Below the pieces are notes generated by a model. The model searched no databases and was not told the origin of the DNA. It saw only the letters and a list, made by a program, of their open reading frames with translations. Of a DNA stretch of 61,908 nt, positions 44,872 to 52,335 are shown in pieces. The DNA is taken from positions 1-61,908 of the forward strand of contig JAICGZ010000003.1 of the NCBI GenBank assembly GCA_025922875.1, given 5' to 3'. Position 1 is the stretch's first letter; each line of letters begins with the position of its first letter. Both the position numbers and the translations under genes were made by a program. Source of the DNA: Pyrinomonadaceae bacterium. GTDB taxonomy: Bacteria > Acidobacteriota > Blastocatellia > Pyrinomonadales > Pyrinomonadaceae.

Positions 44872-45780
44872 ATGTTTCCCTTTAGAAACATACTTTTCCC
44901 CACCGATTTTTCTCCGCACTCGCAGGCTGCGCTGAAGTACGCTGCTGCATTCGCACGCCACGGTGATGGCCGGGTATTGCTGTTTAGCGCGCAGGACGCA
45001 AAGCTTGCCGCAAACGTGCAATCTCAATTGACGGGGTTGCTCTCGGATCCGCTGCTTGAAGGTGTTGAGGTGGATCGCGTGGTAGTGGAAGGTGAGCCTG
45101 CGGCCGAGATCGCTCGAGCAGCGATCGACCACCAGGTTGATCTGATCACAGTCGCCACGCGCGACCGCAATCGACTTTCACGCGCCTTTGGTAGCTCCAT
45201 TGCCGAAGAGATTGTCGCCGAGTCGCCCTGCGCCGTGCTTGCCGTCCGGCCGCCGCAACGTGATTTTGTAGAACATCGTGACGGGCAAACTGAGATTCGA
45301 TTGAATCGCGTGCTACTGGCCACAAACTTCCGCCCGTCTTCGGTCGCAGCAACTCAACTCGCCACCCAAATTGCAAACCATCTCGGCGCGGAACTTCACG
45401 CCGTCTACGTGATTGGTGATTACTTCGAACAGATCTCGGCAGTGTTTCCGGAAGGCGGGCTCGCGGCTTTGACTCGACTACGCAGCTACGTGCAGGAGCG
45501 CATGGGCCATCTGTCGCGCACAGGCGGCGCCGGCGCCAAGACGCACATTGCCGAAGGCAAACCCTACCAGGAGATCGTCAAACTCGCGACGATGATCGAC
45601 GCAGATCTCATCGTGATCGGAACGGCCGTTCACGGATCGTTGTTTGGGAATAGTCAGGTGCTGGGCTCGGAGATTGAACGAGTGATCAGAAACGCGCCGT
45701 GTCCGGTGCTTTGCGTTCCTGCCGCTAAGGTTCTGACGCCATTGCCGGCGTTAGTGACGCAGACCGTCCCCCAAATGTAG
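44872..45780 (+). CDS. Tandem universal stress protein (two UspA domains)
   Basis: A 302-residue cytosolic protein with two Usp folds, at about 1-135 and 145-290. The first has FRNILFPTDFSPHSQAALKY and ITVATRDRNRLSRAFGSSIAEEIV; the second has RVLLATNFRPSSVAATQL and LIVIGTAVHGSLFGNSQVLGSEIERVI. The G-x2-G-x9-G nucleotide loop is not well kept in domain 1, but a related pattern is visible in domain 2. Probably stress-linked. It stands alone; the convergent rhodanese gene ends 60 bases away across a family C hairpin. Confidence 0.9.
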   Translation: MFPFRNILFPTDFSPHSQAALKYAAAFARHGDGRVLLFSAQDAKLAANVQSQLTGLLSDPLLEGVEVDRVVVEGEPAAEIARAAIDHQVDLITVATRDRNRLSRAFGSSIAEEIVAESPCAVLAVRPPQRDFVEHRDGQTEIRLNRVLLATNFRPSSVAATQLATQIANHLGAELHAVYVIGDYFEQISAVFPEGGLAALTRLRSYVQERMGHLSRTGGAGAKTHIAEGKPYQEIVKLATMIDADLIVIGTAVHGSLFGNSQVLGSEIERVIRNAPCPVLCVPAAKVLTPLPALVTQTVPQM

Positions 45781-45838
45781 CCACAAAAAAGCACAAAAAG
45801 CACGAAACTTTCAGACGTACCTTTTGTGCTTTTTGTGG
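45781..45838. repeat. Family C inverted repeat (CACAAAAAGCACAAA words), copy 2
   Basis: Left CCACAAAAAAGCACAAAAAG and right CCTTTTGTGCTTTTTGTGG are near complements. The element fills exactly the space between the stop codon of the stress gene (45778-45780) and that of the rhodanese gene (45841-45843), which argues that the rhodanese frame really ends at 45841, not at the internal TGA. Confidence 0.85.
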
Positions 45839-45840
45839 CT

Positions 45841-46299
45841 CTATTTCTTCTGGATCGGCTTTCCTTGCTGCTGCCACAAGTTGTAACCGCCAAGCAACGC
45901 TGCTGCGTTTTCAACACCTTTTGTTTTGAGAGCGACCACCGCACCGGCGGACGTTTGTTCTTTCGTTCAAGAACAATACGTGACAATCGTCTTGTCACGC
46001 GGCAACTCGTCTAAGTGGTTCAAGATATCGCCCGCGGGAATTAGGCGCGCGCCCGGAATATGTCCGAGGTCATACGCCGCCTGGTTTCTAACATCGACTA
46101 CAAAAGCTTTCCCCTCTTTCATCAAAGCCTCGAACTCTTCGATGGTGATCCGGCGTGCACCATCCGGATTGGCTGCTTGAAGATCGGCACTACTGGTTGG
46201 CTTCGGCGGAGTGCTAGCCACCGGCATATCGACCGCATTACACGCGACAAGCATGGCGGCGGCCAATATCGTCGCGAAATAGAAAACTTTGAGATGCAT
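45841..46299 (-). CDS. Rhodanese-like lipoprotein, probable selenoprotein (in-frame TGA at 45967-45969)
   Basis: The frame encodes 152 residues if TGA is read as selenocysteine (position 111). ATG 46299 follows a GGAGG site. The signal ends in the lipobox MLVAC, so it is a periplasmic lipoprotein. The rhodanese domain runs ITIEEFEALM, FVVDVRNQAAYDLGHIPGARLI and IVTYCS, then TGA, then TKEQTSAGAVVALKTKGVEN and AAALLGGYNLWQQQGKPIQK, an intact C-terminal half. Relatives with a YC-x-C-P active site have Cys at the TGA position. A SECIS-like hairpin follows at the right distance. It would transfer sulfane sulfur. Read as ordinary code it would be a broken 110-residue fragment. It is divergent from Soe-like genes. 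Confidence 0.75.
45933..45953 (-). promoter_or_regulatory. Bacterial SECIS-like hairpin in the rhodanese mRNA
   Basis: On the minus-strand RNA, CGUCCGCC pairs with GGUGGUCG (one U-U mismatch, one G-U) around the loop GGUGC. The loop begins 22 bases after the UGA and starts with G, within the window described for bacterial SECIS elements (apical loop about 16-37 bases from UGA, G among its first bases). It also encodes the TSAGAVVA stretch, so coding and structure overlap. Confidence 0.6.
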
Positions 46300-46370
46300 T
46301 AAGAACCTCCGTATTAACGGCACCTAATGTGTTACGCCGCGTGAGATTTGTCAATTCCTCGGGGGAGAAG

Positions 46371-46404: not shown

Positions 46405-47988
46405 ATGATGGAATCGCCTGAGCCGATTCAGTGGGCTAAGGTAATTGACCACACACGCTGCATCGGCTGTCACGCATGCACTACCGCGTGCAAATCGGAA
46501 AACTTAGTGCCGCTTTCTGTCACGCGCACTTACGTCAAGCACGTCGACATCGGTGTGTTTCCACAAGCGCGACGCGCTCATCAGGTGACGCGCTGTAATC
46601 AGTGCGCCCACGCTCCGTGTGTCACCGCTTGCCCAACGACGGCGATGTTCAAGCGGGCCGACGGTATTGTCGATTTTGATAAATCGATCTGTATCGGTTG
46701 CAAGGCGTGCATGGCCGCGTGCCCTTACGACGCGATCTTCATCAACCCTGAAGACCATTCTGCTGAGAAGTGCAACTTCTGCGCGCATCGCATCGACATG
46801 CAACTCGAACCGGCGTGTGTCGTCGTTTGTCCCACGCAGGCGATTCTTGTGGGCGACATGAATAAGTCAGACTCTTACGTCGCGCAGATTATCAACCGCG
46901 ATACTGTTGTCGTGAGACGTCCTGAGAAAGAGACCTTGCCGAAACTTTTTTACAAGGGCGCTCATCAAGCCACGCTCGATCCGCTCGCCGCGAAGCGACC
47001 GGAAGGCGGTCTCTTTATGTGGAGCGAGCAACAGCATGGGACGGGCCTGGTCACTTCGGGCAATCCGAACTTCAACAACTCCTCGGCGGCAGCGTTATTG
47101 TCGTACGACGTCGCGCATTCTATTCCATGGGACTGGCGTGTGAGTCTTTACACGTGGACCAAGGGAATCGCTTCGGGTGTTTATCTCGTGGCTTGTTTGC
47201 TCGTATTGGTTGGTCTGCTCGACGTAAATAGTTCGATCTGGTTGTGGGCGACGCCGGTTATCTCAGGCGCCTTTCTCGGGATCACCGGCGGGCTGTTGCT
47301 TTGGGATCTCGAACATCCGGAACGCTTCTATCTAATCTTTACGCGAGCGCAGTGGCGCAGTTGGCTGGTGAAGGGCGCGTTTATTATCGCTGGTTACGCG
47401 GTTGTGCTCGCACTTCATTTCATCGCGAGCTGGTTTGGATCGATGTCTTTTCAATCGTGGCTGATGATCGCCGGAATCCCGTTATCTGCCTTAACGGCCG
47501 TTTACACTGCATATCTATTCGCACAGGCGAAGGCTCGCGACATGTGGCAAAATCCGCTGCTGCCGCCACATCTGTTTTTTCAGGCAGTGTTGTTGGGATC
47601 GGCAGTGCTTTTGCCGTTGATAGTATTGCTTCCAACTGCTGCGAATGAGTTCATGATCGGATTTATGCGACCGGAAACACGCTGGTTGCTATGGTCGCTG
47701 GGCCTCTCGAGCATGATTCATTTACTGATGATTTGGGGCGAAGTTTCTCTGACGCATCCGACGGCGCACGCGCGGCTCGCGATCTGGGAGATGGTGAAAG
47801 GAAGATACAAAGAGAATTTCTGGACCGGCACTATTCTGTCGCTAGTCGGTGGTCTGCTGCCTCTGCTGGCAGCGATGAACATCATTGGCATGTCTGTAGG
47901 CGTAGCCGGCGCGCCCCTCGCGCTGATCGGCTTAATGCTCTTCGAACACGCCTACGTCCAGGCCGGACAATCCGTGCCACTCGCTTGA
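46405..47988 (+). CDS. Fused [4Fe-4S] ferredoxin subunit and NrfD/PsrC membrane subunit (SoeB-SoeC-like)
   Basis: A 527-residue electron-transfer subunit of a molybdoenzyme. Residues 1-190 carry DmsB-type cluster motifs: CIGCHACTTACKSE, CNQCAHAPCVTACP, CIGCKACMAACPYD and CNFCAHRIDMQLEPACVVVCP (four clusters). After a linker, residues 240-527 are an NrfD-like quinone-reactive domain with eight or so helices (TKGIASGVYLVACLLVLVG, LLLWDLEHPERFYLIFTRAQW). In most relatives these are two genes. It pairs with the catalytic subunit at 48073 and passes electrons to quinone. ATG 46405 has a GGGAG site. Confidence 0.88.
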   Translation: MMESPEPIQWAKVIDHTRCIGCHACTTACKSENLVPLSVTRTYVKHVDIGVFPQARRAHQVTRCNQCAHAPCVTACPTTAMFKRADGIVDFDKSICIGCKACMAACPYDAIFINPEDHSAEKCNFCAHRIDMQLEPACVVVCPTQAILVGDMNKSDSYVAQIINRDTVVVRRPEKETLPKLFYKGAHQATLDPLAAKRPEGGLFMWSEQQHGTGLVTSGNPNFNNSSAAALLSYDVAHSIPWDWRVSLYTWTKGIASGVYLVACLLVLVGLLDVNSSIWLWATPVISGAFLGITGGLLLWDLEHPERFYLIFTRAQWRSWLVKGAFIIAGYAVVLALHFIASWFGSMSFQSWLMIAGIPLSALTAVYTAYLFAQAKARDMWQNPLLPPHLFFQAVLLGSAVLLPLIVLLPTAANEFMIGFMRPETRWLLWSLGLSSMIHLLMIWGEVSLTHPTAHARLAIWEMVKGRYKENFWTGTILSLVGGLLPLLAAMNIIGMSVGVAGAPLALIGLMLFEHAYVQAGQSVPLA

Positions 47989-47992
47989 ATCA

Positions 47993-48069
47993 TTGTAGGG
48001 GTGGCCCTCCGTGGCCACCCCTCGTAAGTTTTTGCCGAAGGGGGCGGCCACGGAGTGCCGCCCCTACAA
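47993..48069. repeat. Family H inverted repeat between the two Soe-like genes
   Basis: Left TTGTAGGGGTGGCCCTCC and right GGAGTGCCGCCCCTACAA are the ends of 29-base arms (47993-48021 and 48041-48069) that match about 26 of 29. It begins four bases after the stop and ends three bases before ATG 48073, so it fills the gap and could tune translation of the catalytic subunit. Confidence 0.9.
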
Positions 48070-48072
48070 AGA

Positions 48073-50919
48073 ATGAGCCAAAAAGAGACTTTCTATCCTG
48101 GTCCGAGTCGGAGTCATCTCGCGGCGTTCCCGCCAAAGGAGCGCTGGGATGATTGGACGGAGCTTGATTCGCGTGCGTGGCCGCAACGAAAGGAGCGACA
48201 CTATTCACTCGTTCCCACTACTTGCTTCAACTGCGAATCCGCCTGTGGATTGCTCGCGTACATCGATAAAGTCACGGGCGAGGTACAGAAGTTCGAGGGC
48301 AATCCCGAACATCCCGGCTCGCGCGGGCGCAACTGCGCCAAAGGTCCCGCGACACTCAACCAGGTAACAGATCCCGACCGCATTCTTTATCCACTCAAGC
48401 GCGCGGGAAAACGTGGCGAAGGAAAATGGGAACGCACAACCTGGGATGAAGCACTCGACACCCTCGCCGCGCGGATTCGCAACGCAATCATGGAAAACCG
48501 GCGGCACGAAATCATGTATCACGTGGGCCGGCCCGGTGAAGACGGCTTTACCGAACGCATCCTCGCCGCGTGGGGAATTGACGGGCACAACTCACACACG
48601 AACATCTGTTCCTCCGGCAGCCGCGAGGGTTATCAACTCTGGATGGGTCTCGACCGTCCCAGTCCGGATCATGCAAACGCGAAAGTCATACTGCTGATCA
48701 GCGCCCATCTTGAATCGGGTCATTACTTCAATCCACATGCGCAGCGCGTCATCGACGGCAAGACAAACGGCGCGAAGCTCATCGTGTTTGACACGCGACT
48801 CTCGAACACCGCCACTCACGCCGACTATTGGGTGTCGCCATATCCAGGCTCGGAAGCCGCCATCCTGCTCGCGATTGCAAACTACCTGATCCAAAACGAT
48901 CTTTACGATCGCGAGTTTGTCGAGCGATGGTGGAACTGGAAAGAGTTTCTCGCTGCTGAAAAAAGCGCAACCACGGATTTTGCGGATTTTGAAGCCCGCT
49001 TAAAACGGATCTACAGCGAGTATACTTTTGAGTTTGCGGCGAGGGAATCAGGCGTCGATGCATTAGTAATTGAAGAGATTGCGAAGCTGGTGGCTTCGGC
49101 AGGTTCGCGTTTCTCGACTCACAACTGGCGTAGCGTGGCCTCGGGAGTCAGCGGTGGTTGGACCGTTGCTCGTTGCCTCTTTATGCTGAACGCGTTGCTC
49201 GGTGCAGTAGCAACTGAAGGCGGCGTCTACCCCAACGCGTGGAACAAGTTTGTGCCGCGGCCGATGTACACGCCGCCACATCCGAAGATGTGGAACGAAA
49301 CCACGTGGCCGCGCGAGTACCCGTTGTCGATGAATGAAATGTCGTTTCTGCTGCCGCACTTCCTGAAAGACGGCCGCGCGAAACTCGACGTGTACTTCAC
49401 ACGCGTTTACAACCCTGTATGGACCAACCCGGACGGCTTTTCGTGGATCGAGATGTTGACTGATCCGGATCTCGTCGGCTGTTACGTCGCGCTCACGCCG
49501 ACGTGGAACGAAACGTCATATTACGCAGACTACGTTTTGCCCATGGGCGTGGGCTCGGAACGTCACGATCTTCACTCTTACGAAACACACGACTCGCAGT
49601 GGCTCGGTTTTCGTCAGCCGGTGATGAAAGCTGCTCGCCAACGGGCAGGTGAGACGATCGACGACACGCGCACGGTCAATCCGGGTGAAGTTTGGGAAGA
49701 GAACGAATTCTGGCTCGAGTTGACGTGGCGCATAGATCCGGATGGCAGTCTCGGTATTCGGCAATATGCCGAGTCGAAAAAACATCCGGGCACACGGCTC
49801 GGTATCGATGAGTATTACGAATGGATCTTTGATAACTCGGTTCCCGGCCTGCCCGAACGAGCAGCCGCAGAGAATTTGACCCCGCTGGAATTCATGCGTC
49901 GCTACGGCGCGTTTGAAGTGAAGCAAAAGATTGGAGCGATTTACGATGAGGCGGTCGCTCCGGAAGAACTCGAGGATCTGCACGAGGATCACTTTGGCCG
50001 CGTTTTCACGCGCGCGCCAAAACCCGCGGGGCCAAACATTGTTCCGCTGCCACTGCCGGATGGCGACAAAGAAGGCCGGCGATTAGTTGGTATCAACCTC
50101 CACGGACAAATCAAACGTGGTTTTCCAACGCCGAGTGGCAGGCTCGAGTTCTATTCTTCGACACTGGCCCATTGGGGATGGCCTGAGCTGGCGATCCCCA
50201 CTTATTTCAAAAGCCACGTTCACCCGGACAACCTCGAGGAAGGCCAGACGATCCTCATTTCAACCTTCCGCCTCGCGGTGCAGATTCACACGCGCAGCGC
50301 GAACTCCAAGTGGCTTGACGAGATTGCGCACACGAATCCACTTTGGATTCACCCGTCGCATGCGGATAAGCTCGGCGTGCGTACGGGCGATCTCGTGCGC
50401 GTCGAAACCGAGATTGGCTTTTACATTGTGCCCGTTTGGGTAACGGAAGGCATTCGACCCGGCATCGTGGCGTGTAGTCATCACATGGGTCGTTGGAAAC
50501 TGACCGACGAGGGGCAGAAACAGTTGATGGCGACGGTGAAGTTAGATCACAACGGAACTAAGTGGGGCTTGAAACGCGAGAAAGGGATCGAGCCATACAA
50601 GTCGAGTGACGCTGACACGTTGCGGATCTGGTGGAAAGATGCGGGTGTGCATCAGAACATGACTTTTCCAGTCCATCCGGATCCGATTTCCGGCATGCAT
50701 TGCTGGCACCAGGCCGTTCGCGTTCGTGCGGCTGATCCGGCCGATCGGCCCGGCGATATTTTCGTCGACACACAGAAGTCGCGGGAGGTTTACAAGAAGT
50801 GGCTGGCAATGACGCGCCCGGCCGATCAGTATTCGCCGGATGGCACCCGCCGGCCCTACTGGATGTTGCGTCCATTGAAACCAGCGCCTGAGTTTTATAA
50901 ATTGCCCGAGGAGAAATAG
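48073..50919 (+). CDS. Molybdopterin oxidoreductase catalytic subunit (SoeA/PsrA-like)
   Basis: A 948-residue Mo-bisPGD enzyme of the DMSO reductase family. N-terminal [4Fe-4S] site: TTCFNCESACG then GRNCAKG. The likely Mo ligand is the Cys of HTNICSSGSREG. Cofactor and substrate-domain motifs include ILLISAHLESGHYFNPHA, FDTRLSNTATHADYWVSPYP, HNWRSVASGVSGGW and SYYADYVLPMG; the C-terminal domain has NPLWIHPSHADKLGVRTGD. There is no Tat signal, so it should face the cytoplasm, as in SoeABC sulfite dehydrogenase and unlike Psr/Phs reductases. With the persulfide dioxygenase next door, sulfite oxidation is the best guess; polysulfide or tetrathionate chemistry is not excluded. Confidence 0.85.
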   Translation: MSQKETFYPGPSRSHLAAFPPKERWDDWTELDSRAWPQRKERHYSLVPTTCFNCESACGLLAYIDKVTGEVQKFEGNPEHPGSRGRNCAKGPATLNQVTDPDRILYPLKRAGKRGEGKWERTTWDEALDTLAARIRNAIMENRRHEIMYHVGRPGEDGFTERILAAWGIDGHNSHTNICSSGSREGYQLWMGLDRPSPDHANAKVILLISAHLESGHYFNPHAQRVIDGKTNGAKLIVFDTRLSNTATHADYWVSPYPGSEAAILLAIANYLIQNDLYDREFVERWWNWKEFLAAEKSATTDFADFEARLKRIYSEYTFEFAARESGVDALVIEEIAKLVASAGSRFSTHNWRSVASGVSGGWTVARCLFMLNALLGAVATEGGVYPNAWNKFVPRPMYTPPHPKMWNETTWPREYPLSMNEMSFLLPHFLKDGRAKLDVYFTRVYNPVWTNPDGFSWIEMLTDPDLVGCYVALTPTWNETSYYADYVLPMGVGSERHDLHSYETHDSQWLGFRQPVMKAARQRAGETIDDTRTVNPGEVWEENEFWLELTWRIDPDGSLGIRQYAESKKHPGTRLGIDEYYEWIFDNSVPGLPERAAAENLTPLEFMRRYGAFEVKQKIGAIYDEAVAPEELEDLHEDHFGRVFTRAPKPAGPNIVPLPLPDGDKEGRRLVGINLHGQIKRGFPTPSGRLEFYSSTLAHWGWPELAIPTYFKSHVHPDNLEEGQTILISTFRLAVQIHTRSANSKWLDEIAHTNPLWIHPSHADKLGVRTGDLVRVETEIGFYIVPVWVTEGIRPGIVACSHHMGRWKLTDEGQKQLMATVKLDHNGTKWGLKREKGIEPYKSSDADTLRIWWKDAGVHQNMTFPVHPDPISGMHCWHQAVRVRAADPADRPGDIFVDTQKSREVYKKWLAMTRPADQYSPDGTRRPYWMLRPLKPAPEFYKLPEEK

Positions 50920-50955
50920 GTCCTACAGGACCTAGTAGGACATATAGGACCTATG
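50917..50955. repeat. Family F repeat (AGGACCTAT words) exactly spanning stop to start
   Basis: TAGGTCCTACAGGACCTAG then TAGGACATATAGGACCTATG: the first TAG is the stop of the molybdoenzyme gene and the last ATG the start of the next gene. Inner palindromes are AGGTCCT/AGGACCT. Confidence 0.85.
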
Positions 50956-52335
50956 TTTTTTAAACAATTCTATCTCGCGTGTTTGGCTCATGCTTCTTAC
51001 CTGATCGGCTCGGACGGCGAAGCAGTTGTCGTCGATCCGCAGCGCGACGTGGACGAGTATCTCGCAGAAGCTTCAGCGCACGGGTTTCAAATCAAATATG
51101 TAATCGAAACGCACCTTCACGCCGATTTTGTCAGCGGACATCAGGAGATCGCTGCCCGGACAGGTGCGCAGATCGTCTTCGGTGAAAAAGCAGCCGCTGA
51201 ATTTGCACATCGAGCGGTGCGAGATGGTGAAGAGATCAAGATCGGCAAAGTCGTGCTGCGCTTCATCGAAACACCAGGCCACACGCCCGAAGGCATCTGC
51301 ATACTCGTAACCGACACCGAATCCCCGGACCAACCGCAAAAACTCCTAACCGGCGACACGCTTTTCATCGGCGACGTCGGACGCCCGGATCTTGCGGGCG
51401 GCAAAGGTTACACGCCGCAGATGATGGCGGAGATGATGTACGAGAGTCTTCATGGAAAACTGCTGAAACTTCCTGACGACGTTGAGGTTTATCCGGCTCA
51501 CGGCGCAGGCTCGATGTGCGGCCGTAACATGTCGAAGGAAACATCTTCAACCATTGGCGAGCAACGTAAATTCAATTACGCGCTGAAGCCGATGAGTAAA
51601 GAAGAGTTTGTGACGATGATGACCGCGGACCTTCCGGAGGCTCCGGTTTACTTTCCGAAAGATGCGGAGATCAATCGATCCGGCGCGCGCGGTCTTTACG
51701 AGTTGCAACCACCAGCGCCTTTGACGCCGCAACAGGTGCTTGAATCCAGGCAACGAGGCGACGTACTGCTAGACGTCCGTTCGGCTGCGGATTTCGGCGC
51801 CGCTCACGTGCCTGGCTCGATGAACATCGGACTCGGTGGTCAATTTGCGATGTGGGCCGGCAGCCTGATCCCGTTGAGTGCTGCCATCGTTGTGATCGCC
51901 GACACGGGCGCTCAGGTCGATGAGTCAGTAGTTCGCCTCGCGCGCGTTGGGATTGAAAACGTGAAAGGCTATCTGGACGGCGGCATTCAGAGCTGGCGCG
52001 AAGCTGGATTTCCGGTTGATTCGATCGAGCAGGTGAGTGTCGAGCAGTTGAAAGAGAAGATGGATGATAACGAGCTTCAGATTGTAGACGTGCGGCGCCC
52101 GGCTGAATACGTCAATGGACACGTGCCAGGCGCGTTTAATGCCCCACTTGCAAATCTGGATAAAAGCCTTGGTCCATTGCCACTGAAGAGAGACAAGCTA
52201 ACCGCAGTGATTTGCGCGGGCGGTTATCGATCGAGCGCGGCGGCTAGTTTGTTACAGCAGCAGGGCTTTTCAAACCTCCTCAACGTGTCCGGTGGGACAG
52301 GGGCATGGATCAACGCCGGCTATCCCGTAGAATAA
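50953..52335 (+). CDS. Persulfide dioxygenase-like MBL-fold protein with two rhodanese domains
   Basis: A 460-residue cytosolic protein. Residues 1-240 are an ETHE1-type metallo-beta-lactamase domain: ETHLHADFVSGHQEI, IETPGHTPEG, LLTGDTLFIGDVGRPDL and VYPAHGAGSMCGRNMS. Two rhodanese domains follow. The first (about 265-355) lacks the active Cys (VVIADTGAQVDE). The second (about 365-460) has VICAGGYRSSAAA with Cys. ETHE1-type enzymes oxidise glutathione persulfide to sulfite; the active rhodanese would feed or drain persulfide. It lies 33 bases after the Soe-like catalytic gene, separated by a family F repeat. Together they suggest persulfide to sulfite to sulfate. Confidence 0.9.
   Translation: MFFKQFYLACLAHASYLIGSDGEAVVVDPQRDVDEYLAEASAHGFQIKYVIETHLHADFVSGHQEIAARTGAQIVFGEKAAAEFAHRAVRDGEEIKIGKVVLRFIETPGHTPEGICILVTDTESPDQPQKLLTGDTLFIGDVGRPDLAGGKGYTPQMMAEMMYESLHGKLLKLPDDVEVYPAHGAGSMCGRNMSKETSSTIGEQRKFNYALKPMSKEEFVTMMTADLPEAPVYFPKDAEINRSGARGLYELQPPAPLTPQQVLESRQRGDVLLDVRSAADFGAAHVPGSMNIGLGGQFAMWAGSLIPLSAAIVVIADTGAQVDESVVRLARVGIENVKGYLDGGIQSWREAGFPVDSIEQVSVEQLKEKMDDNELQIVDVRRPAEYVNGHVPGAFNAPLANLDKSLGPLPLKRDKLTAVICAGGYRSSAAASLLQQQGFSNLLNVSGGTGAWINAGYPVE

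What the first reader, a model, noticed from the sequence alone, without database searches (positions are those of the whole stretch)
45841..46299. Candidate selenoprotein: rhodanese lipoprotein with Sec two residues after the catalytic Cys
Seen: the frame from ATG 46299 meets TGA at 45967 right after TYCS. The downstream sequence then continues in the same frame as a perfect rhodanese C-terminal half (TSAGAVVALKTKGVEN, LLGGYNLW) to TAG 45841, and the family C hairpin begins exactly there. There is no frameshift and no second lesion, so decay is unlikely. From family knowledge: relatives have YC-x-C-P with Cys at this place, and Cys-to-TGA is the standard mark of selenocysteine. A SECIS-like hairpin is present. 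A periplasmic selenium rhodanese lipoprotein next to sulfur-oxidation genes would be new to me.
Basis: partly seen in the sequence, partly recalled or inferred. Interest (0 to 1): 0.88.

Follow-up and report, generated by a model that had tools for sequence, protein, structure and literature searches.

The report
Selenium-containing rhodanese lipoprotein in Acidobacteria
A soil acidobacterium appears to read a stop codon as the selenium amino acid selenocysteine inside a membrane-anchored sulfur-transfer protein; the gene is real and conserved among its relatives, and it is a membrane-anchored branch of an already catalogued kind of selenium protein.

Summary
The frame 46299-45841 (-) has one in-frame TGA (45969-45967) in the active-site loop of a rhodanese lipoprotein. 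The evidence says selenoprotein gene, not decay. The genome has tRNA-Sec, selA, selB and selD (selD with its own in-frame TGA). Of 90 related loci examined, 83 (60 genomes) have TGA exactly at YC-x-U, 6 have Cys there, 1 lacks the motif. Codons after the TGA are under purifying selection. A SECIS-type hairpin 16 nt past the TGA shows compensatory change tied to a Ser codon switch (TCC with G, AGC mostly with C). A loop T at a synonymous position is kept in 79 of 83 Sec genes, against 250 of 1381 comparable codons in the same genes and 1 of 6 Cys relatives. The host is Pyrinomonadaceae-like (Acidobacteriota); 28 of 34 relatives keep a window neighbour. The kind is known: CxU rhodanese, NCBIfam NF041203, listed in reviews. 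That is the window protein's best family, but at 73.5 bits it misses the 115-bit cut-off. What looks new is a lipoprotein branch in a conserved sulfur-related locus. The chemistry (Cys109 persulfide, Sec111 redox partner) is inferred and untested.

The parts
45841..46299 (-). selenoprotein gene: lipoprotein with one rhodanese domain, 152 aa, Sec at residue 111
   Evidence: relatives
46306..46310 (-). ribosome-binding-site-like GGAGG before the ATG
   Evidence: read directly
46240..46299 (-). lipoprotein signal peptide with lipobox LVAC (Cys20)
   Evidence: lipobox pattern in 54 of 89 loci by a simple script rule, this one included
45868..46143 (-). rhodanese domain (PF00581, residues 53-144)
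   Evidence: confident fold model over the domain
45973..45975 (-). Cys109, aligned with the catalytic Cys of rhodaneses
   Evidence: profile alignment with 3tp9; follows strand 104-108 in the model
45967..45969 (-). TGA read as selenocysteine (Sec111)
45933..45953 (-). bacterial-SECIS-type hairpin: conserved stem 45950-45946 with 45940-45936, loop 45945-45941
45780..45840 (-). strong hairpin between the ends of this gene and the convergent Usp gene, terminator-like
46405..47988 (+). divergent neighbour: 4Fe-4S ferredoxin domain fused to NrfD-type membrane subunit (start codon chosen by eye)
   Evidence: conserved neighbour
48055..50919 (+). molybdopterin oxidoreductase, best NCBIfam match thiosulfate reductase PhsA but far below its cut-off; no Tat-like signal seen by eye
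50953..52335 (+). metallo-beta-lactamase fold plus two rhodanese stretches (persulfide-dioxygenase-like, inferred)

Best explanation
The gene makes a membrane-anchored, extracytoplasmic selenoprotein. During translation SelB brings Sec-tRNA to the UGA at codon 111, directed by the hairpin that starts 16 nt after it. The product is a single-domain rhodanese whose active-site loop reads Cys109-Ser-Sec111-x-x-Glu. Shown by comparison: Sec coding, the SECIS, the conserved neighbourhood (my odds for Sec coding are 0.95). Inferred: Cys109 takes up sulfane sulfur as a persulfide, as in other rhodaneses, and Sec111, two residues on in the same loop, acts as redox partner (selenenylsulfide with Cys109) to release or pass on the sulfur, serving the neighbouring sulfur-related enzymes (my odds for this chemistry are about 0.6). 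The conserved Glu three residues after Sec, in a loop where ordinary rhodaneses often have Arg, suggests a substrate other than thiosulfate (inference). The confidence given is for the whole, chemistry included.
For: Sec machinery: tRNA-Sec 69.4 bits, anticodon TCA, SelA 449.6 bits, SelB 390.4 bits, SelD 365.6 bits with its own in-frame TGA at SCSG-U. Position: 83 of 90 loci examined have TGA at YC-x-U, 6 Cys, 1 no motif. Selection: dN/dS after the TGA 0.20, 0.19, 0.20 and 0.44 against four relatives. SECIS: 0 of 2000 synonymous-codon shuffles reach the observed pairing (0.957 against a mean of 0.914); loop T in 79 of 83 Sec genes against 250 of 1381 control codons and 1 of 6 Cys genes; on 22 rows 8 cells change on both sides, 0 of 500 shuffles as high. 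Natural control: two near-complete genomes of one genus without a full SelA or a strong tRNA-Sec have 5 rhodanese matches, none with TGA or the CxU/CxC loop. Neighbourhood: 28 of 34 loci keep at least one window neighbour on the same side.
Against: No experiment shows Sec in the protein. The single-sequence hairpin is not stronger than shuffled. The codon shuffle breaks relatedness, so its zero count is not a strict probability. The loci were taken from the top of a list ordered by similarity to the window protein, which favours TGA forms. The Mo enzyme and the lipoprotein may lie on opposite sides of the membrane (no Tat signal seen), which weakens a direct partnership. The redox role of Sec111 rests on motif logic only; no atomic distances were measured. 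Two genomes with TGA forms (G001, G013) gave neither SelA nor a strong tRNA-Sec, though they are 67% and 62% complete.
Confidence: 0.6

Rival explanations
1. Pseudogene: a nonsense mutation has cut a normal Cys rhodanese.
For: An in-frame stop in one MAG, taken by itself.
Against: The same TGA in 83 of 90 loci from 60 genomes, purifying selection downstream, no second lesion in the frame.
Confidence: 0.01
2. TGA is read as another amino acid or by plain readthrough, not as Sec.
For: TGA is reassigned in some other lineages (recalled).
Against: TGA ends 2 of 11 window genes looked at, and Trp is written TGG in 10 of them; the same site is Cys in the six non-TGA relatives with the motif; the Sec machinery and the hairpin signature are present.
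Confidence: 0.02
3. It is a selenoprotein, but Sec111 and not Cys109 is the sulfur-carrying nucleophile, or the protein is a thiol/peroxide redox enzyme on a rhodanese fold rather than a sulfurtransferase.
For: Sec is usually the catalytic residue in selenoenzymes (recalled); a Glu follows three residues after Sec in 83 of 83 Sec rows.
Against: Cys109 is invariant in a 40-row alignment and aligns with the YC of 3tp9; conserved setting beside persulfide-dioxygenase-like and Psr-like genes.
Confidence: 0.3

Closest known systems
NCBIfam NF041203 rhodanese_LYCAU; 'rhodanese-like form 3, CxU' in PMC13188914 (COG0607 form 2, CxU, in PMC9312934)
   Same: Rhodanese fold, C-x-U active-site loop, Sec two residues after Cys; best-scoring NCBIfam family
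   Different: Window protein scores 73.5 bits against a cut-off of 115; lipoprotein signal; loop U-T-K-E; conserved place beside a Mo-oxidoreductase locus. Whether other NF041203 members are lipoproteins was not tested
Metallo-beta-lactamase/rhodanese proteins and persulfide dioxygenase-rhodanese fusions (PDB 3tp9, 5ve3)
   Same: Among the nearest solved relatives by profile and by fold; a protein of this build is encoded about 4.7 kb away in the window
   Different: 3tp9 has an ordinary YCRTGGRS loop without Sec, two residues shorter in the HMMER alignment; fused to the metallo-beta-lactamase fold
TsoB rhodanese/DsbD fusion-like selenoprotein (NF045694)
   Same: Listed as a Sec-containing rhodanese-type protein
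   Different: UxxxxU motif and 572-position fusion model; 27.1 bits here against a cut-off of 805

Membership tests
Bacterial selenoprotein genes | Sec machinery (tRNA-Sec, SelA, SelB, SelD) in the genome | tested here: met
Bacterial selenoprotein genes | In-frame UGA at a conserved site with Cys in other homologues | tested here: met
   83 TGA, 6 Cys, 1 without motif among 90 loci examined
Bacterial selenoprotein genes | SECIS hairpin shortly after the UGA with a conserved apical-loop G | tested here: met
   stem starts 16 nt after the TGA, loop G in 83 of 83 Sec rows, covariation. The consensus itself is recalled; bSECISearch was not available
Bacterial selenoprotein genes | Sec shown in the protein | not testable with these tools
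   needs 75Se labelling or mass spectrometry
Rhodanese domain (PF00581) | Score over the Pfam gathering cut-off | tested here: met
   64.9 bits against 22.2, (TGA given as Cys)
NF041203 rhodanese_LYCAU (CxU rhodanese) | C-x-U loop in a single rhodanese domain | tested here: met
   YCSU
NF041203 rhodanese_LYCAU (CxU rhodanese) | Score over the curated cut-off of 115 bits | tested here: not met
   73.5 bits; of ten related proteins scanned two pass (L093 115.3, L150 142.2)
Lipoproteins | N-terminal signal with lipobox | tested here: met
   LVAC at residue 20, (simple pattern, no dedicated predictor)
Active sulfurtransferases | Sulfur transfer activity | not testable with these tools
   needs an assay

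The most novel reading that the evidence does not exclude
A membrane-anchored seleno-rhodanese that makes sulfane-sulfur handling outside the cytoplasm selenium-dependent, feeding a persulfide-dioxygenase plus Mo-enzyme sulfur-oxidation route in soil Acidobacteriota, with a Cys-Sec pair in one rhodanese loop as a new redox mechanism.
Probability: 0.25. Interest if true: 0.65.

Novelty: new variant of a known kind. Interest (0 to 1): 0.42.

Why it matters
A conserved selenoprotein branch in soil Acidobacteriota is likely to be annotated as a truncated protein, because TGA is taken as a stop and the annotation model's cut-off misses it (inference). It ties selenium to sulfur chemistry in uncultured Acidobacteriota. 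Natural Sec and Cys versions within one genus (for example G000 and G006) give a ready pair for testing what Sec adds to a rhodanese.

Tried and rejected
Pseudogene, reassigned TGA and plain readthrough were considered and rejected (see rivals). The strong hairpin at 45840-45780 was rejected as the SECIS because it lies after the stop codon. Folding one sequence alone gave no significant hairpin signal; only the comparison did. A scan of the window for other TGA-interrupted frames gave 90 mechanical candidates, the given one included; the other 89 were only looked over by eye and not tested. The single-protein scan of genome contigs found no relative; the alignment scan did. The viral-contig scan found none. 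An early script read minus-strand loci on the wrong strand; its output was discarded and redone. The tree has few columns for its rows and many unresolved forks; I use it only for a minimum of 4 Sec/Cys changes.

Rows left out: one search lists 89 matches with E up to 6.4e-17, of which one (G034:C27:77696-77998, listed without a stop) was not fetched; two further own-genome paralogs (C37, C39) were added, giving 90 loci. Weaker matches were not examined except in G035, G055 and G089, and that list is itself cut. The 89 loci with the motif come from 62 of the 97 genomes (own included). L145 (a tblastn relative) was left out of the neighbourhood count of 34. One search used 22 of the 28 Sec loci among L022-L050. 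Loci L112-L146 largely repeat genomes already seen under G handles, so they are not added to the 83.

Full report
Observation. The minus-strand frame from ATG 46299 meets TGA at 45969-45967 directly after TYCS and stays open to TAG 45843-45841. Read through, it is a 152-residue protein with a signal peptide, a lipobox (LVAC, Cys20) and one rhodanese domain that spans the TGA (Pfam E 9.9e-18, residues 53-144). An AlphaFold model built on 40 sequences, with Cys in place of Sec, has high confidence over the domain (block means 86-98 from residue 41 on; mean pLDDT 86.4, pTM 0.71). Its top matches among solved structures are rhodanese-domain proteins (3tp9, 3nhv, 5ve5 and others).

Host. The window genome is a 6.8 Mb MAG in 542 contigs, 93.5% complete and 4.9% contaminated. 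The named records that encode the closest proteins are MAGs labelled Pyrinomonadaceae, Blastocatellia, Chloracidobacterium or Acidobacteria, so I take the host to be a Pyrinomonadaceae-like acidobacterium (inference from these names).

Sec machinery. The genome has a tRNA-Sec with TCA anticodon (69.4 bits over a 47-bit cut-off; ARAGORN agrees), SelA, SelB and SelD. SelD carries its own in-frame TGA at SCSG-U. The tRNA-Sec, SelB and SelD models also give weaker hits in all 14 control genomes, so only the strong scores count; the SelA model rings in 2 of 14 controls. A second tRNA-Sec-model hit in this genome (51.6 bits, contig C426) was not followed up. In 97 genomes, own included, SelA matches in 93.

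Conservation of the TGA. All 97 genomes searched, own included, have rhodanese matches. I examined 90 loci: 30 brought and 60 fetched. They are the strongest matches, plus two weaker own-genome paralogs, so the sample leans towards forms like the window's. In 83 (60 genomes) the TGA lies at YC-x-U (FC-x-U in two); six have a Cys codon there (L032, L051, L070, L077, L090, L097); one (L096) lacks the motif. Four of the six genomes with a Cys form also have a Sec form among the loci examined. On a quick tree the Sec/Cys state needs at least 4 changes. dN/dS after the TGA is 0.20, 0.19, 0.20 and 0.44 for the window gene against L023, L024, L025 and L029, and 0.12 and 0.09 in two other close pairs, so the part after the TGA is selected as protein. 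dS is high in several of these, so the values are rough.

Natural control. Two genomes of one genus (G035, G055; 99% and 97% complete) have no full SelA (one 24.6-bit hit in G035, none in G055) and no strong tRNA-Sec (best 46.8 and 47.6 bits, against 67.7-75.8 in G002, G006, G036 and G089). Their five rhodanese matches have no TGA and ordinary loops of the C-x-x-G-x-R kind. Against a clean rule: G001 and G013 carry TGA forms but gave neither SelA nor a strong tRNA-Sec; they are only 67% and 62% complete. G089 has a strong tRNA-Sec but no SelA match, and its one rhodanese match has no TGA.

SECIS. RNAalifold on the 83 Sec rows predicts a five-pair stem at positions 20-24 with 30-34 (T of TGA = 1), with a five-base loop. 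Pairing is 95.7% of cells; shuffling codons for the same residue among sequences gives 91.4% on average and at most 93.0%, 0 of 2000 as high. All nine TCC serines in the stem meet G34; of 74 AGY serines 57 have C34, 7 have G34 and 10 have T or A. On 22 rows, 8 have both sides of that pair changed and 0 of 500 shuffles reach the covariation score. The third base of the loop codon is T in 79 of 83 Sec genes, in 250 of 1381 other Gly/Arg/Ser codons of the same genes, and in 1 of 6 Cys relatives. This is a synonymous-site requirement that tracks Sec. Stem pairing is 95.7% in Sec rows and 73.3% in the six Cys rows. The window hairpin alone is not unusual in energy (z -0.27).

Neighbourhood. Upstream and divergent lie a ferredoxin-NrfD fusion, a molybdopterin oxidoreductase whose best NCBIfam match is PhsA (207 bits, cut-off 694), a metallo-beta-lactamase protein with two rhodanese stretches, and DUF445. 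Downstream lie Usp, an amino-acid permease and CstA. Of 34 named loci, 17 keep the divergent block (12 with the NrfD fusion), 21 keep a downstream neighbour and 28 keep at least one (tblastn, E up to 1e-20 and identity at least 40%). Some contigs are short, so losses are not shown; on the other hand four loci (L124, L136, L139, L142) have as their downstream permease one of only 42-45% identity, which could be another permease. The Mo enzyme shows no Tat-like signal by eye, so it may be cytoplasmic while the lipoprotein is outside; a direct partnership is unproven.

Mechanism. Cys109 is invariant in the 40-row alignment and aligns with the Cys of YCRTGGRS in 3tp9. Sec111 follows two residues later, and a Glu three residues after Sec is present in 83 of 83 Sec rows (the pattern used to find the motif asks for a nearby Glu, so this is slightly biased). 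I propose persulfide formation on Cys109 and a redox role for Sec111; this is inference.

Known or new. Reviews list rhodanese selenoproteins in several forms, including a CxU form tied to NF041203 (PMC13188914 and PMC9312934, passages seen). Older marine surveys already list rhodanese-related selenoproteins (PMC1088965 and PMC2398784, passages seen). The window protein's best NCBIfam family is NF041203 but below its cut-off (73.5 of 115 bits). Ten related proteins scanned all have it as best family; two pass. In 199 genomes of the phylum 180 match and one passes the cut-off; many of the listed matches there carry a TGA too (the window gene scores 66.4 in that six-frame search against 73.5 with Cys put in, so its scores run lower). 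Searches for seleno-rhodanese phrases and for selenoproteins in Acidobacteria listed no paper on this branch by title or abstract; the library holds only open-licence papers.

Verdict. A real selenoprotein gene: odds 0.95 for Sec coding; about 0.6 that Cys109 carries the sulfur with Sec111 as partner. New variant of a known kind.

Noticed in passing
L192 605-2290 (own genome contig C39): A membrane protein that looks like a cation:proton antiporter, fused at its C terminus to a rhodanese domain with YCAUPNEATSA, that is a Sec-type fusion paralog; the antiporter label is from the look of the sequence, no family search was run on the whole protein.
   Followed up: partly
G050:C625, G043:C5, G029:C66, G021:C259 (L044/L052, L037/L053, L050/L056, L033/L057): These genomes carry two seleno-rhodanese genes close together in tandem; not all of the eight met the simple lipobox rule.
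   Followed up: no
L092, L093 (own genome contigs C180, C37): Two further CxU seleno-rhodanese paralogs, one small and apparently cytoplasmic (MEATR start), one that just reaches the NF041203 cut-off (115.3 bits).
   Followed up: partly
L018 1082-2011: selD of this genome has an in-frame TGA at SCSG-U-AAK, so it looks like a selenoprotein gene too.
   Followed up: yes
L032 (G006): Same-genus Cys version beside the same NrfD-fusion and Usp neighbours (L119); the outer pair of its former SECIS stem and the Ser codon there are lost, as expected after a recent Sec-to-Cys change.
   Followed up: partly
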